A stretch of 7,578 bases of DNA from Candidatus Desantisiibacteriota bacterium (lineage in GTDB: Bacteria > JACRDZ01), in the NCBI GenBank assembly GCA_016209155.1, contig JACQWU010000073.1, forward strand, positions 1 to 7,578. The letters run 5' to 3'. This document shows positions 2,145 through 7,578 of the stretch, one piece after another; within the stretch, counting starts at the first letter, position 1, and each line of letters begins with the position of its first letter. The translations under genes and the position numbers were made by a program. A model generated the notes under the pieces. That model did no database searches. It had not been told where the DNA came from and saw only the letters and a program-made list of their open reading frames with translations.

Positions 2145-3545
2145 TCAAGATAATTTTTCAGTTTCCATTTGATTTTTATTGAAAATCTTGATTAGTTTTT
2201 TTAGTTCTTCATCAATATATTTATTCGATAAGGTGCTAAAATTCAGAGTAGTGATATTGTTTTTCTTACAATAATTTTTCACTTTAGACATCATTAAGAG
2301 TCTGCTTTTCCATGTCGGTGAGTTTTCGATAACCTCTAACTGAGGTGGCCTTCCCATCTTAAAAAACTTAAAAATATTATGAATCCTGCTCCATTTTTCC
2401 ATTTCCTTATCATATGAGAGGCCTTTATCCTTCGCATACCGAATCCAGATATTATGCTCTCTAATGCTTTTCCTAAAATCTCTAATTTTTTTATCAGTCC
2501 ATCCAGCTTTAGTATGAATGTAATAATCATTTTCTGTTTGTCCATCTTTAGATTTTTGAGAATTATAATTATCTTCTATAGAGTCTAACGGTCTAAATCT
2601 ACAGTCTGTGATCTGCACTCCCAACTTTTTGCAATACTTCAACTTTTTCAACATTTCATCATATGGAACACTAAAATTATAGATCATGAACACTGAAATA
2701 TCTTTTGCGTTATATCCTGCAGCTACAAGGGAATCCACCTGTACTTTAATAGATGAATAATCAGCAAATGAATTATCCCAAGCAATTCTAATATTTTGGA
2801 ATCTTGTTTTTTTAAGCAACTCGGCTAATTCCGAATCTTTCTCTAATAACCGGCCGTCAAAGCCGCTTTGCGATTCGAAAACAACAGATTTTTCATTTAA
2901 TCTCAGACTGGCAAGAACCTTAAGATTTTGTTTTATATGTCTGTTGGCTAAAAAATTATTATCAAAAAAAATAACTTTATTTTTACCGATTTCCTTAAGC
3001 TCCTTTATCAAGTCCTCTGATGTTTTGTCGTAACGATCCGGTTCTATTTTCCATGTTCCACAAAAAGCGCATTTTCTTATACAACCCCTCATAGCATGAG
3101 TAACATGATGATCGATTTCGCCGTTCAATAATGAATAATCAGGGTAGAAGTTTTCAGCGCCTAAGTGAAGCCCAACATAACATTCTGCCGAATATTGTTT
3201 AAGTTTATTTTGAAAATATTCCATATCATTATGAAGTGTTGCATAAATACCCCCAACAATTATTTTGGCCTTAGGGAACATGCTTCTATAATGCTCTACG
3301 GCACTCCAAACATACTTAGACCAATAAGTAAAAATTGAGGTTATTAATATTAGGTTAGGATTAAATTGAATGTTTTCTTTTGATTTATTACCCCTTTCAA
3401 GGTATACATGTGCCCCTAAAGATTTATAATATGCTCCAAGTTTTAGCAAACCTATAGGAACAAAATTCCTATGAATTTCATTTGCTTGATTTTTACTTTT
3501 TGTAGGATAAGGGAAGGCGGGTTCCACTAAAAGAACATTATTCAT
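2145..3545 (-). CDS. Radical SAM protein with degenerate B12-binding-like N-terminus
   Basis: This 466-aa protein appears intact. The N-terminal part (1-130) has the Rossmann-like layout of B12-binding domains found before radical SAM modules: MNNVLLVEPAF, PIGLLKLGAYYKSLGAHV (30-47), LILITS and IIVGGIYATLH (95-105). The DxHxxG cobalamin motif is missing. GCIRKCAFCGTW (154-165) gives the CxxxCxxC triad (C155, C159, C162) that binds the 4Fe-4S cluster and S-adenosylmethionine, followed by VIFFDNNFLAN (191-201). The C-terminal 120 residues are Lys-rich and not recognised. The start ATG overlaps the upstream stop by one base (TAATG) and lacks a Shine-Dalgarno, suggesting reinitiation after the 135-aa gene. 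It is the last gene of the AT-rich operon. The substrate is unknown; a nucleic-acid-related reaction is inferred only from the DndD-like neighbours. TGA is the stop. Confidence 0.85.
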   Translation of the reverse strand: MNNVLLVEPAFPYPTKSKNQANEIHRNFVPIGLLKLGAYYKSLGAHVYLERGNKSKENIQFNPNLILITSIFTYWSKYVWSAVEHYRSMFPKAKIIVGGIYATLHNDMEYFQNKLKQYSAECYVGLHLGAENFYPDYSLLNGEIDHHVTHAMRGCIRKCAFCGTWKIEPDRYDKTSEDLIKELKEIGKNKVIFFDNNFLANRHIKQNLKVLASLRLNEKSVVFESQSGFDGRLLEKDSELAELLKKTRFQNIRIAWDNSFADYSSIKVQVDSLVAAGYNAKDISVFMIYNFSVPYDEMLKKLKYCKKLGVQITDCRFRPLDSIEDNYNSQKSKDGQTENDYYIHTKAGWTDKKIRDFRKSIREHNIWIRYAKDKGLSYDKEMEKWSRIHNIFKFFKMGRPPQLEVIENSPTWKSRLLMMSKVKNYCKKNNITTLNFSTLSNKYIDEELKKLIKIFNKNQMETEKLS

Positions 3546-3952
3546 TAGTACAGATTCAATAAGACGTAATTTAATAAATTTTCACCTTTTTTAGGTGAAT
3601 TACTAAGTATTTCACTATATAATTTTCTAAATCCTCCCTTTGCATACTCTTCCATAATAGTTTTAACCGTCACATAACCATTTTCATCTAATTCATTATT
3701 AATGAACGCAATTGATTTAAAGGCTTCATAAATAGTTAGAGCATTTTCTAAATTTAACACCGAGGTTTTTAGGGTCAGTTGTTTAGGATCCTCTAAGGGT
3801 ATTCTAAGATTATATTTATAACCAATACAAGCAGACAAAAGGAAAATTTCCGGATGATTATTAAAAGGGAATTCTCTATCTGACTCTATGTTCGTATACA
3901 AATCGAAATCTTCTTTTTCAACATAAAATCTATCAAAAAATGCCTCTATCAT
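3545..3952 (-). CDS. 135-aa protein resembling Dnd (DNA phosphorothioation)-associated protein 4
   Basis: A small soluble protein without membrane segments or cysteine clusters. Two stretches recall the family annotated as DNA phosphorothioation-associated protein 4: HPEIFLLSACIGYKYNLRIPL (33-53), like its 'alxFAAalGyxxxxRxPL' pattern, and IMEEYAKGGFRKLYSEI (99-115), like its 'iFEEYANGGLxxL' end. This comparison is from memory of the family and was not searched. Its molecular role is unknown even in the family. The start is well fixed: ATG 3950-3952 comes directly after the TAG of the DndD-like gene and has an AAGGAG six bases upstream. Its stop overlaps the radical SAM start by one base. The sequence appears complete, unlike the ATPase and helicase before it. 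Function inside the operon is inferred only from position. Confidence 0.7.
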   Translation of the reverse strand: MIEAFFDRFYVEKEDFDLYTNIESDREFPFNNHPEIFLLSACIGYKYNLRIPLEDPKQLTLKTSVLNLENALTIYEAFKSIAFINNELDENGYVTVKTIMEEYAKGGFRKLYSEILSNSPKKGENLLNYVLLNLY

Positions 3953-5338
3953 CTATGTCTCCTTTTTTATAACTGTCATGCCATTTAATACAGTATTCAA
4001 ACTATATATTGCTGAAATATCATTAGAACATAATTGATATAAATCCTTAGTAAATTCGGAACTTGTCACTAACAAAAAAAGCTGGGTAATATATTGAGGA
4101 ATACTTTTTACTAATTTTTGTCTATGAATTGGGTCAAGATTACCCATCGGAGTATCCATTACAAACGGGCCTTGGTCACCAGAAACTTTAGCCAACCCAA
4201 GAATCAACGATAAGCTAAGTATTTGTCTTTCACCATACGATAATTGCTTTAAGATATTTTCGTTACTGTATTCCCTAAAAACATTCAACTTATATTCATC
4301 GTCAATGAATATATCCTTAAACACTCCTTCTTTCCTAATTATGCCATCAAAAATTAGCTTAATTTTCCCATTGATTTTGGCAATTTCAGTTTTTTCATAT
4401 TTATCGTAAAGTCGTTCGATCTCATCTCGTATCTTATAACTGAACTGTAATTTCTTTTTTTGTTTTTCCGTAAATTCAGATAAGCTCTTTATTGCCGAAA
4501 TAAACATTTCTTTGTATTCTTTTATATCTGGTAATTCTTCGCTAATCATCGATTCTTGCTTTGCTATACTTTCGTCATAATTCTCGATCTCTTTTTCGTA
4601 GTCATTAATATGCTTCTTAGAATCTGCAATATGGTGAAAGATTTTTTCACCTTCCTTTTTCGCAGAAGTAAAACTACTTGACAACTGAATAAGATTTTGA
4701 GGCGAACCGCTCTCGCTGGTAATCTTTGGCAGCTTAGTTAATATTAATTCTTTCTTTTCTTCTGTTAATTGTTCATGGCATATATAACATTGATTATTTT
4801 TTAAGGTTTCCCTGATTATTTCTCTAACACTTTCCGCATTGATCTTTTTTGCTTGAGGTTCAATATTTATCACTTGCAATGCATCAACTAATAGCTTATC
4901 AGCAAAACACAAATATACCTTTTTGAAATATTCGTACATTTCTTCGGCACACTTTTTTAGTTGTTCTCTTTTTTCATTGCGTTTTGTTTCATTTTCAAGC
5001 TTATTTTCTTTGTATATTGAATTTTGCTCAATGCTCGTTATTTCTTTTTCCGTGTTTTCGATATCCTTCTCGATGGCCGCAATATCGTTCGATATATTAT
5101 CAAGCTCCTTTTTGCTGTGTTCAATAGTTTCATCTAATTCCCTTATCTTCGACTTAATATTTTCAGTAGTTCCGTCATTTTCGTCGTCTTTTATTTCCCC
5201 CGTGATTTCTTTTATCATTACACTGATGTGATCTTTTGCACGTTTAATAGTTTCAATTTTTAGGAGATTTTTAATTGCGTTACCAACATCCTTGTAATGA
5301 TCATCTTTAGTAAAAGTTTCGATCCTTGCCCCATCGAC
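3953..5338 (-). pseudogene. DndD-like SMC/SbcC-type ATPase, C-terminal fragment (frameshifted)
   Basis: The frame is open from 5344; the recognisable protein begins VDGARIETF at 5338, matching the conserved FDGExI block of DndD. Without a better start a gene finder would begin at the internal ATG 5218, which has no ribosome site. Numbered from that Met: a Lys/Glu-rich coiled coil (about 20-90), a zinc-hook-like CYIC (144-147), a second coiled coil (185-280), the ABC signature LSYGERQ (326-332), Walker B PFVMDTP (351-357) and D-loop GNLDPIHR (359-366). DndD proteins are ATPases of the DNA phosphorothioation machinery thought to act on DNA for sulfur insertion. Together with the N-terminal fragment it would make about 590 residues, a little short for DndD. 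A general SbcC-like defence ATPase is the alternative. It ends immediately before the 135-aa gene. Confidence 0.75.
3959..3964 (-). promoter_or_regulatory. Ribosome binding site AAGGAG for the 135-aa gene
   Basis: Read on the minus strand, AAGGAG lies six bases before ATG 3952, inside the last codons of the DndD-like gene. It confirms the start and shows that this gene can initiate independently even if translation of the damaged upstream ATPase fails. Confidence 0.75.
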
Positions 5339-5730
5339 GCGACTTCATCATCAATGCTTTCTTGAATAGTCCCATCTTTTATTTTTTGAAGGTTGTATTT
5401 TTCATTAGGCTTCAATTGGTCTGTCAAACTGTTTATGACTGATATATTTCTCTTTATGATATATAAAATATCATCGTGCTTAAAATGAATTTCTATGTAC
5501 ATTTCAACTTTCTTTCCAGCTGGCGCCTCATCTAGAGCTTTATCATTAATTAATTCTTTAATATTAGTTTTTTCATTATAGAGACACCATGTTAGCCCAC
5601 TAATCAAGTTGGTTTTTCCTGCGCCATTCTCCCCGCGAATAATTATAATTTTCCCCTTTTCTGGAATACTAATTACTTGTTCATTGTAATACTGCCTATA
5701 GTTATGAAGTTTTATTTTATTAATTTTCAT
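5260..5730 (-). pseudogene. DndD-like ATPase, N-terminal fragment with Walker A
   Basis: From ATG 5730 the protein starts MKINKIKLHNYRQYYNEQV, typical of RecF/SbcC/DndD heads, followed by Walker A GENGAGKT (33-40) and LTWCLYNEK (46-54). Meaningful sequence runs to about residue 130 (QESIDDEV, near 5341). The remaining codons to the TAA at 5260-5262 are out of frame, because the real continuation is in the frame ending at 3953. ATG 5730 is preferred over an upstream in-frame start at 5805 because a GAGG lies six bases before it and the N-terminal beta strand begins correctly there. It overlaps the stop of the 52-aa gene by 11 bases. Alone this fragment cannot form an ABC ATPase, since signature and Walker B are in the other half. 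The break is either a real mutation or an assembly error. Confidence 0.75.
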
Positions 5731-5878
5731 TAAATGCCTCATCAATAATATCCCTATATATTTCCTTATATTGGGGCTGCAACTTATGCAACTGAGATTG
5801 TTCATATTCCAATATTTTCATCACTAGAGATTTTACTTCATGGTCTTGAATTAGACTTAAAATATTTTCTAAGTTCAT
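5720..5878 (-). CDS. 52-aa small protein between helicase and DndD-like ATPase
   Basis: ATG 5876-5878 opens a 52-codon frame ending TAA 5720-5722. It begins MNLENILSLIQDHEVKSLV and ends YKEIYRDIIDEAFNEN. It is a real gene by three signs: a canonical AAGGAG eight bases upstream, a start overlapping the helicase stop as ATGA, and an end overlapping the DndD-like start by 11 bases. The sequence is charged and predicted helical, with a Leu/Ile heptad-like spacing (ILSLI, LVMKILEYE, IYRDII), and has no membrane segment. I do not recognise the family with certainty. Its size, position and pattern recall small helical proteins that accompany DndD-like ATPases in DNA modification operons, so it may be a structural or regulatory partner of the ATPase. 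It appears intact. Confidence 0.75.
   Translation of the reverse strand: MNLENILSLIQDHEVKSLVMKILEYEQSQLHKLQPQYKEIYRDIIDEAFNEN
5737..5740 (-). promoter_or_regulatory. Ribosome binding site GAGG for the DndD-like gene
   Basis: On the minus strand GAGG lies six bases before ATG 5730, within the end of the 52-aa gene. It decides the start of the DndD-like protein in favour of 5730 rather than the longer open frame beginning at 5805. Confidence 0.6.
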
Positions 5879-6717
5879 AGATTATACTCCTTGAAAATAT
5901 TAATAAAATTTCTCATTAGAGCATTCTTTTGAGAATAACTGATTATGTCATGCACAGCATTATAATTACTTGCAGCCGATGCAAATTCTAGAATTCTTTT
6001 TAACTCTCTTTCAAATAATTCTCTGTCAGCCTGTGAAACAAATTCCGGGGGGACAACAAGAAAATCATAAATATCTGCACTTTTCTTCTTTCCTTCTTTA
6101 TCTTTACGCAAAACCCTACCTCTTCTTTGAATGTATTGCTTCGAGTTAGTAGAGCTTGCAAGTATAATAGCTTTATCAGCTGATGGAATATCTACGCCTT
6201 CGTCTAAGCAACGCATCGCAAGAATACAGTGGATATCTTTCTTAACAAATTTTTCTATTACATCAATTCTATCAGCCTTATTTATATCGGCAGTAATTTT
6301 CAGGGTAACAATATTCATTTCTTCCAATATATTAATGGTTTCGTCAAAGAAATTTTTGTTTTCTGCTGTATAAATTAAAGTATTGTAATAATTATTGAAG
6401 TTACTTAATATTTCTCTAAGAGTAACTAATTTACTTGAACATGTAGATACTATCTGAGATCTTTGTCTCAATAAATATTGCAATCTATCTTCATCAGGAT
6501 TGCCTCGTGAAAATAGTTGTGCAATTTTAATTGATAATTGTTTATATTTGTTATATTCGGTCGTATTTAGTTCGCAGAAACTGACAAAAAATCTATAAGG
6601 GACAAGGAAGCCCCTCTTAATAGCCTCTTTAATGCTTAACTCATAGATTGATGAACCGAAATATTCCTGTATTGCTCTGTTGCCTTCCTCGTCATAGGGT
6701 CTACTGGGAGTCGCACT
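5875..6717 (-). pseudogene. SF2 DEAD/DEAH-type helicase, C-terminal part (Dnd restriction-like)
   Basis: From 6717 the frame reads SATPSRPYDEEGNRAIQEYF, which is motif III followed by the linker, and runs open for 280 codons to TGA 5875-5877. ELSIKEAIKRGFLVPYRFF follows the linker. Further motifs are the RecA2 strand TLIYTA (near 6369), motif V CLDEGVDIP (6210-6184) and motif VI QRRGRVLRK (6129-6103). These are hallmarks of SF2 helicases/translocases. The overall style recalls the DEAD/DEAH enzymes found with DNA phosphorothioation and type I/III-like restriction. No good start exists: TTG 6483 is an internal Leu codon with no ribosome site. The same frame continues upstream across a TGA (6718-6720) into the fused fragment. 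The Walker A and DEAH motifs are absent from the window, so no active ATPase can be made. The stop overlaps the 52-aa start (ATGA). Confidence 0.8.
5887..5892 (-). promoter_or_regulatory. Ribosome binding site AAGGAG for the 52-aa gene
   Basis: AAGGAG on the minus strand ends eight bases before ATG 5878, inside the last helicase codons. This strong site is the best single argument that the short frame is translated. Confidence 0.75.
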
Positions 6718-6954
6718 TCAACCCATTCTAACAAAATAATCAGAGGATCCGGTAGTTGTAGTTGTTACGACTATGCCAGTTTTTTTATCACCATAAATCA
6801 TGTTCTGTAGAAGCTTATTTAAATGTCCATCCCATTCTTGTCGATTATCATAGCATTTAACAATTTCTTCTATGGGAAAAATATCCTTTATATTATTCGC
6901 CCATTGATCAACCAGATGCTGGTACGGACAACATATTATAAGTAAGAAATTTTC
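6718..6954 (-). pseudogene. SF2 helicase fragment (motif Ia region) fused to PEPCK
   Basis: After the PEPCK-like part the frame changes character to FLLIICCPYQHLVDQWANN, a typical motif Ia segment of SF2 helicases. It is followed by GIVVTTTTTGSSDYFV, the segment that leads to the DEAH box. It then reads RMG, stop (TGA 6718-6720), SATP. In intact relatives 'RLGLSATP' follows the DEAH box by about 20-25 residues. So the DEAH strand and surroundings are missing, and the Leu codon of RxGLSATP appears as TGA. The Walker A region, which should precede FLLIICCP, is also missing. The fragment is in frame both with PEPCK upstream and with the helicase C-terminal part downstream, confirming that it belongs to the same gene. 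Confidence 0.75.
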
Positions 6955-6961
6955 TTTACTT
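6940..6961. repeat. Imperfect palindrome at the PEPCK/helicase junction
   Basis: On the plus strand, AAGTAAGAAA (6940-6949) faces TTTCTTTACTT (6951-6961). The arms are inverted copies except for one extra base. The palindrome covers the codons for SKENFLL, exactly where PEPCK similarity gives way to helicase similarity. It is very AT-rich, so chance cannot be excluded, but such a structure could promote a deletion or mislead an assembler. Confidence 0.45.
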
Positions 6962-7578
6962 ATATTCAATCCTTCAACATTAAAATCGTTTATATCAGGT
7001 ACTAAACCTATAGGTGTTTCTTTAGCTTGCGACTTGTTTGTAACACGTTCTATTATCCATTTTATAACACGAATATTATCTCCAAACCCGGGCCAAATAA
7101 ATTTACCATTGTCATCTACTCTAAACCAATTAACCGAATATATTCGTGGTGGATTAGTTAATCGTTTACCAACATTTAACCAGTGCTGAAAATAATCACC
7201 CATGTTATAACCGCAGAACGGTAACATTGCCATCGGGTCACGTCGTAAAATACCGACCTGGTGCAACGCTGCAGCTGTTGTTTCTGACCCCATACGCGCG
7301 CCAAGAAATACACCGTGTGTCCACGAAAAACTTTCAACTACCAACGGGACAAGTTTTGTTCTTCTGCCACCAAATATTATTGCTGATATAGGCACACCTT
7401 TCGGGTTATCAAACTCTTTTGATAGCATCGGACAGTTTTTTATCGCTACAGTAAACCTTGAATTAGGATGCGCAGCTTTATTCCCGGAATTTTTATCCCA
7501 CACATTTCCCTGCCAATCAACAATATTCGTCGGAACTTCGCCATCTAATCCTTCCCACCAGGGTTCATTTGTATCAGT
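6955..7578 (-). CDS. pckG: Phosphoenolpyruvate carboxykinase (GTP), partial, C-terminus replaced
   Basis: The minus-strand frame is open from the right edge; its 5' part lies outside the window. It begins TDTNEPWWEGLDGEVPTNIV and contains AAHPNSRF, PKGVPISAIIFGGRR, WTHGVFLGARMGSETTAAA, DPMAMLPFCGYNMGDYFQHW, SVNWFRVDDNGKFIWPGFGDN and ETPIGLVP. These are all hallmarks of GTP-dependent PEPCK, which converts oxaloacetate and GTP to PEP, CO2 and GDP in gluconeogenesis or anaplerosis. About 208 residues are visible, roughly the last third. The kinase P-loop would be upstream. After GLNISKEN the normal final helices (around 45-50 residues in relatives) are replaced by helicase sequence. GTG 7503 could be mistaken for a start but lies mid-gene. 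Base composition is richer in G+C than the operon next to it. Truncation is either real or an assembly artefact. Confidence 0.9.

What the first reader, a model, noticed from the sequence alone, without database searches (positions are those of the whole stretch)
2145..6717. Tight Dnd-like operon ending in a radical SAM enzyme: candidate unusual DNA-modification/defence system
Five genes on one strand (SF2 helicase, 52-aa protein, DndD-like SMC ATPase, 135-aa Dnd-associated-4-like protein, radical SAM) are joined by overlaps of 4 and 11 bases, a 0-base gap and a 1-base overlap. Known Dnd modification needs a cysteine desulfurase and the DndC ATP-pyrophosphatase. Neither is here, while a radical SAM protein is locked into the operon by start/stop overlap. 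This suggests a Dnd variant whose chemistry or signalling uses radical SAM, or an operon relying on dndA/C/E elsewhere. Architecture is seen in the sequence; the defence role is inferred from family knowledge.
Basis: partly seen in the sequence, partly recalled or inferred. Interest (0 to 1): 0.72.

Follow-up and report, generated by a model that had tools for sequence, protein, structure and literature searches.

The report
Broken Pbe defence operon with radical-SAM
The window holds a decayed copy of a known anti-virus gene cluster (PbeABCD) that ends in a radical-SAM enzyme gene; intact relatives across bacteria and archaea, and sister genes in another defence system (DISARM), suggest this enzyme marks the cell's own DNA in place of the usual methylase or sulfur-modification enzymes.

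Summary
The five-gene order and its overlaps are real, but two genes are broken. The helicase (PbeA) lacks its nuclease part, Walker A and DEVH motifs, has an in-frame TGA, and runs into a truncated PEPCK gene at the contig end. The DndD-like gene is frameshifted. It is not Dnd: it is PbeABCD (the CxC-ATPase/DndE system), plus an intact radical SAM gene.

The radical SAM link is not accidental. The same PbeABCD-rSAM order occurs in Stahlbacteria, Chloroflexota, Bacillota and Asgard archaea with intact PbeA. The same enzyme family also ends DISARM-type operons (DrmA-B-C-E-rSAM). It sits beside ParB_N, DndB and GHKL-ATPase modules, and phages carry it alone. rSAM-bearing Pbe/DISARM loci lacked DNA methylases and DndC (0 of 25), while 4 of 7 sampled loci without it had one. 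A tree shows repeated swaps between Pbe, DISARM and other modules.

Best reading: a radical SAM DNA-modification (self-marking) component that substitutes for methylase or phosphorothioation. The linkage is shown; the chemistry and DNA substrate are inferred. I found no description of this pairing in the papers I could search. The window copy is probably non-functional for restriction.

The parts
2145..3545 (-). radical SAM protein, 466 aa, intact; N-terminal B12-type Rossmann domain plus radical SAM barrel; candidate DNA-modification enzyme
   Evidence: PF04055 E 3e-10; carries the invariant columns of a 22-member family; AF2 pLDDT 87, best folds AprD4/MgmA/RimO/MiaB/TsrM
3060..3083 (-). CxxxCxxC motif (C155, C159, C162) that binds the 4Fe-4S cluster in radical SAM enzymes
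   Evidence: invariant in alignment A1
3545..3952 (-). PbeD / DndE-cognate, 135 aa
   Evidence: TIGR04062 dnd_assoc_4 E 1e-7, 32 bits, below its cut-off of 74; aligned with PbeD of 8 Pbe loci
3953..5730 (-). PbeC, DndD-like CxC ABC ATPase, frameshifted
   Evidence: PADLOC DndD/PbeC E 4e-38 (C part) and PbeC E 3e-30 (N part); frame change between about 5395 and 5335
4778..4789 (-). zinc hook CYIC of PbeC
   Evidence: aligned with CTIC of L020; CxxC at the same place in 10 relatives
5720..5878 (-). PbeB-like small protein, 52 aa (shorter than relatives of about 65-76 aa; similarity weak)
   Evidence: position and weak alignment only
5875..6960 (-). PbeA remnant: C-terminal part of the SF2 helicase; N-terminal HKD nuclease, Walker A and DEVH missing
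   Evidence: PADLOC PbeA E 3e-56, TIGR04095 E 6e-46; tblastn of intact PbeA
6718..6720 (-). in-frame TGA stop in the PbeA remnant
6961..7578 (-). C-terminally truncated GTP-PEP carboxykinase fused in frame to the PbeA remnant; runs off the contig
   Evidence: PF00821 E 1e-96; complete C-terminus on contig C112 of the same genome

Best explanation
The window carries a decayed PbeABCD (CxC ABC-ATPase/DndE) restriction operon whose last gene, still intact, encodes a radical SAM enzyme of a family that works as the modification (self-marking) component of several restriction-type systems. In intact versions, PbeC/PbeD scan DNA and PbeA (HKD nuclease plus helicase) attacks unmarked DNA. The radical SAM enzyme would put a base modification on host DNA, taking the place of DndCDE phosphorothioation or of a DNA methylase. 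Shown here: family identity, conserved gene order, exchange between Pbe, DISARM and ParB/DndB/GHKL modules, near-absence of other modification genes beside it, phage-borne orphan copies, and decay of the window copy. Inferred: that the substrate is DNA, the nature of the mark, and that the mark protects self.
For: PADLOC PbeA/PbeC matches. Same gene order PbeA-B-C-D-rSAM in L020, L022, L028, L029, L033, L063 and L071. Divergent members beside Pbe in L121, L122, L124. The full-length PbeA proteins of these loci keep HKD, Walker A and DExH. The family ends DISARM-type operons: L065 DrmA, DrmB, DrmC by PADLOC, DrmA and DrmE in L011, L066, L110, L112, L117. It lies beside a ParB_N protein fused to a DpnII/MboI nuclease domain (L024), beside DndB proteins and GHKL ATPases. 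Other modification genes (methylases, DndC) were found in 0 of 25 rSAM+ Pbe/DISARM loci and in 4 of 7 rSAM-minus loci (m5C methylase L143, L146; DndC L075, L076; Fisher p 0.001). No DndC over cut-off in 14 genomes that carry the rSAM or in the own genome. Phages carry the gene without the restriction module. The tree needs at least 14 context changes; sister pairs differ in context, e.g. L117 DISARM / L121 Pbe.
Against: No chemistry is shown and no DNA-binding domain was identified in the enzyme. The 0-of-25 versus 4-of-7 contrast is post hoc, uses loci related to each other, flanks of unequal length, and screens by similarity and motif. Methylases do lie near some other rSAM loci (type I HsdM in L012/L018, N6/N4 methylase in L031). 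Some Pbe loci have neither rSAM nor another modification gene (L074). RNA or protein modification, or signalling, would give similar linkage. The window copy itself may have no function.
Confidence: 0.6

Rival explanations
1. The radical SAM enzyme makes an antiviral small molecule (as viperin makes chain-terminating ddhNTPs) and the Pbe/DISARM genes only share the island.
For: Radical SAM enzymes with antiviral function exist (viperins, own knowledge); viperin structures match the barrel (Z about 11).
Against: Whole-chain fold matches are to two-domain enzymes (AprD4 Z 25.1, MgmA 23.1, RimO/MiaB about 21, TsrM/CysS about 20), viperin only to the barrel. Phages carry close relatives, odd for an antiviral nucleotide synthase. 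Genes overlap within one operon.
Confidence: 0.08
2. The radical SAM protein modifies RNA or a protein partner (e.g. matures PbeC/DrmA or a ParB/DndB protein) instead of DNA.
For: Best folds include MiaB (tRNA), RimO (ribosomal protein) and MgmA (MCR protein). Its neighbours differ, but most include a ParB/DndB-type protein or an ATPase.
Against: Its partners differ between Pbe, DISARM, GHKL/ParB and SNF2 modules, so one common protein target is hard to name; methylases or DndC take its place in sister systems.
Confidence: 0.2
3. Passenger: the gene is one of many in defence islands and its place after PbeD is incidental.
For: Many Pbe operons lack it; the window operon is decaying.
Against: Same position with overlapping or closely abutting frames in several phyla including Asgard archaea; 24 of 26 loci from an rSAM scan that did not look at neighbours have a restriction- or ParB/GHKL-type neighbour, the other two are at contig ends.
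Confidence: 0.07
4. The breaks in the window (PEPCK-PbeA fusion, TGA, frameshift) are assembly or sequencing artefacts and the organism has an intact operon.
For: MAG of 352 contigs, 78.8% complete; two different PEPCK copies in one bin; the fusion lies at a contig end; the frameshift lies in an A-rich stretch.
Against: Loss of about 37 residues at DEVH beside the TGA is not a base-call error; no other copy of the missing PbeA part was found in the genome.
Confidence: 0.25

Closest known systems
PbeABCD (Xiong 2019, PMC6459918), the same as CxC ABC-ATPase/DndE systems (Rakesh 2024, PMC10853773)
   Same: Gene order A-B-C-D, HKD-helicase PbeA family, CxxC-hook ATPase, small PbeB, PbeD/DndE cognate
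   Different: A fifth gene, radical SAM, directly after pbeD; no dndCDEA; the window copy has a truncated PbeA and a frameshifted PbeC
Dnd phosphorothioation (DndABCDE, DndFGH)
   Same: PbeC is DndD-like, PbeD is related to TIGR04062
   Different: No DndC in window or genome; hook-type ATPase; PbeA, not DndFGH
DISARM (DrmA-E with DrmMI/MII methylase)
   Same: The same rSAM family ends DrmA-B-C-E operons in archaea
   Different: The window has no Drm genes; in rSAM-DISARM loci no methylase was found in the cluster
Two-domain radical SAM enzymes (AprD4, MgmA, MiaB/RimO, TsrM/CysS)
   Same: N-terminal B12-type Rossmann domain plus radical SAM barrel in the model
   Different: No detectable sequence relative among solved structures; no invariant N-terminal cysteines as in MiaB/RimO

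Membership tests
PbeABCD / CxC-DndE system | Gene order pbeA-pbeB-pbeC-pbeD on one strand | tested here: met
   pbeB only by position and weak alignment
PbeABCD / CxC-DndE system | PbeA with HKD nuclease and SF2 helicase motifs | tested here: not met
   Window copy lacks HKD, Walker A and DEVH. Relatives keep them. So the window is a remnant of the system, not a working member.
PbeABCD / CxC-DndE system | DndD-like ATPase with CxxC zinc hook | tested here: met
   CYIC at 4778-4789; PADLOC PbeC; gene frameshifted
PbeABCD / CxC-DndE system | PbeD / DndE cognate | tested here: inconclusive
   TIGR04062 E 1e-7 but 32 of 74 bits; aligns with other PbeD; DndE fold not modelled
Dnd phosphorothioation system | DndC PAPS-reductase-like enzyme | tested here: not met
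   No TIGR03183 match in the own genome; genome 79% complete
Radical SAM superfamily | CxxxCxxC motif in a TIM-type barrel | tested here: met
B12-dependent radical SAM enzymes | Cobalamin bound by the N-terminal domain | not testable with these tools
   Domain resembles it (PF02310 E 0.011; fold); AprD4 has the domain without cobalamin (own knowledge)
Methylthiotransferases (MiaB/RimO) | Second 4Fe-4S cluster bound by three N-terminal cysteines | tested here: not met
   Only invariant cysteines in A1 are C155, C159, C162, C305, C315
DNA-modifying enzymes of restriction systems | Modifies DNA | not testable with these tools
   Only genetic linkage and exclusion pattern
Viperin | Viperin fold and nucleotide substrate | tested here: inconclusive
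   Barrel-only match, Z about 11

The most novel reading that the evidence does not exclude
A widespread family of radical SAM enzymes, shared by Pbe, DISARM, ParB/DndB-GHKL modules and phages, installs a so far unknown DNA modification that serves as the self mark of restriction systems.
Probability: 0.5. Interest if true: 0.9.

Novelty: new variant of a known kind. Interest (0 to 1): 0.7.

Why it matters
How 'solitary' Pbe systems tell self from non-self is an open question: in Xiong 2019, 320 of 553 PbeAC pairs had no dndCD nearby and 165 had neither dndCD nor a methylase. A radical SAM partner that also takes the methylase place in DISARM gives a concrete, testable answer for part of them and would point to a new type of DNA mark, also used by phages.

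Tried and rejected
Viral contigs for the 135-aa protein: no relative. Plasmids for the rSAM: only about 24-27% relatives in alphaproteobacteria, beside DGQHR and ATP-binding proteins. DndC in the own genome and 14 others: none over cut-off. Intact PbeA elsewhere in the genome: none. PDB sequence search: none. Viperin did not stand out in the fold list. Rejected: a Dnd variant using radical SAM for phosphorothioation (no DndC; Pbe genes); a passenger gene (conserved order); methylthiotransferase (no N-terminal cysteines). Paper searches found no report of this pairing; the ABC-ATPase survey that first described CxC systems (NAR 2020) was not held, so novelty is not certain.

Full report
OBSERVATION. 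The five reading frames and their junctions (overlaps 4 and 11, gap 0, overlap 1) are as described. Two genes are not intact. The helicase frame is open from a PEPCK gene at the contig end (PF00821) to a TGA at 6718-6720, then continues in the same frame to 5875. Compared with intact PbeA proteins it lacks about 300 N-terminal residues and about 37 residues around DEVH. The DndD-like gene changes frame between about 5395 and 5335. The 135-aa and radical SAM genes are intact. The operon is 31.5% GC beside genes of 46.9%, which fits an acquired island.

WHAT IT IS. PADLOC models name the helicase PbeA (E 3e-56) and the ATPase PbeC/DndD (E 4e-38). NCBIfam gives TIGR04095 for the helicase and TIGR04062 (weak) for the 135-aa protein. 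A CYIC hook marks the ATPase as the CxC type. So this is PbeABCD, described as a phosphorothioation-dependent antiviral module (PMC6459918) and re-described as the CxC ABC-ATPase/DndE system, where PbeB is a fast-evolving small protein and PbeD the DndE cognate (PMC10853773). PbeABCD often stands without dndCD (320 of 553 cases), so the missing dndA/dndC is not in itself odd. The own genome has no DndC.

THE RADICAL SAM GENE. A scan of about 85,000 species genomes with the rSAM protein alone found 26 relatives, about 41-60% identical, in bacteria and archaea. I sorted their neighbours. Five have PbeA-B-C-D-rSAM in the window's order (L020, L022, L028, L029, L033). Four have DISARM-type genes (L009, L010, L011, L030). 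Six have a GHKL ATPase plus a protein of about 335 aa. Six have a ParB_N protein, in L024 fused to a DpnII/MboI nuclease domain. Two have a DndB/HEPN-type protein. One has a SNF2 helicase (L008, the closest relative at 60%). Two lie at contig ends. Further sampling gave more: two more PbeABCD-rSAM operons (L063 Asgard, L071 Bacillota), complete DrmA-B-C-E-rSAM operons (L065, L066), and a divergent clade in methanogens beside Pbe (L121, L122, L124) or DISARM (L117, L118, L120, L123), often with a DndB protein. Full-length PbeA proteins in these loci keep HKD, Walker A and DExH, so the window copy is a decayed member of a living family. Frequency is low: 9 of 227 genomes in the Asgard phylum, 18 of 344 in the phylum of Methanococcoides, 1 of 400 Chloroflexota.

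EXCHANGE WITH KNOWN MODIFICATION GENES. In the Bacillota sample, 8 PbeC loci were found. Two carry this rSAM (L029, L071). Three carry a more distant rSAM (L072, L073, L077; one search shows their CxxxCxxC). Two carry DndC and DndD nearby instead (L075, L076). One has neither (L074). Among DISARM loci of the methanogen phylum without the rSAM, L143 ends in an m5C methylase right after DrmC, L146 has an m5C methylase nearby, L144 has only a DPPY motif in an 850-aa protein without Pfam match, and L145 has none found. In 25 rSAM-bearing Pbe/DISARM loci (12 DISARM-type, 13 Pbe) no methylase or DndC relative was found. Counting only confirmed genes this is 0 of 25 against 4 of 7 (Fisher p 0.001). 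The test is post hoc, the loci are related, and flank lengths differ, so it is indicative only.

TREE. A 53-row tree of the rSAM needs at least 14 changes of context. Well-supported sisters differ: L117 (DISARM) with L121 (Pbe), L119 (DndB/HEPN) with L122 (Pbe) inside one genome. The window protein falls with L008 (SNF2), L009 and L010 (DISARM-type) at 99% SH-aLRT, not with the other Pbe copies. The gene therefore moves between restriction modules, as modification or specificity genes do.

PHAGES. Relatives of 42-46% identity occur in two viral contigs (L034, L035). More distant ones occur in Marinitoga camini virus 1, methanogen viruses and Bacteroides phages, in some beside DNA methylase genes. 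Phage-borne copies without the restriction module fit a protective DNA mark better than an antiviral product.

STRUCTURE. The AF2 model (pLDDT 87) has an N-terminal B12-type Rossmann domain and a radical SAM barrel. The best matches are AprD4 (Z 25.1, 339 aligned, rmsd 3.1), MgmA (23.1), RimO/MiaB (about 21) and TsrM/CysS (about 20). No PDB sequence relative exists. Invariant cysteines are C155, C159, C162 plus C305 and C315; the last two are candidates for a catalytic role. The fold does not name the substrate.

MECHANISM. Most likely the radical SAM enzyme supplies the self mark on DNA for a Pbe restriction module. Shown: family, gene order, exchange, exclusion pattern, phage copies. Inferred: DNA as substrate, type of mark, protection of self. 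For the window itself, PbeA is broken three ways and PbeC is frameshifted, so restriction is probably lost, while the modification gene is kept, which is the expected safe order of loss for a restriction-modification pair. That last point is inference.

NOVELTY. The module is known; the pairing with this radical SAM family, and its shared use by Pbe and DISARM, was not found in the literature held.

Noticed in passing
window 6961-7578; contig C112 (L002): A PEPCK gene has lost its C-terminus and runs in frame into the PbeA remnant; a second, C-terminally complete PEPCK is on C112 of the same bin. Real deletion or chimeric contig.
   Followed up: partly
L009 (Methanococcoides vulcani), about 7989-9641: The radical SAM frame has an in-frame TAG near the position of a tyrosine in the window protein; Methanococcoides can read TAG as pyrrolysine (own knowledge), so it may be intact. 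One search lists the TAG.
   Followed up: no
L006, L007 (alphaproteobacterial plasmids): Distant radical SAM relatives lie between a DGQHR (DndB-like) gene and an ATP-binding protein gene in overlapping order, a recurrent triad on plasmids.
   Followed up: partly
L072:11233-12465, L073:9308-10483: Another radical SAM family (N-terminus with DADLLDNGTRHPN) lies next to PbeABCD in two Bacillota genomes.
   Followed up: partly
L024:6589-7971: ParB_N domain fused to a DpnII/MboI restriction nuclease domain, directly before the radical SAM gene.
   Followed up: no
L064:8709-11368: Two different radical SAM members of this family in tandem in an Asgard genome.
   Followed up: no
L110:4996-8178, L009:4753-7872, L112:4706-8008, L117:9053-12382: A conserved protein of about 1,040-1,110 aa (no Pfam match for the L009 and L110 copies) takes the DrmE place between DrmC and the radical SAM gene in methanogen DISARM-type loci.
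   Followed up: partly
L012:6991-7998 and relatives (about 335 aa): Two protein clusters (c10, c12) between a GHKL ATPase and the radical SAM gene, weakly like NF047698, function unknown.
   Followed up: no
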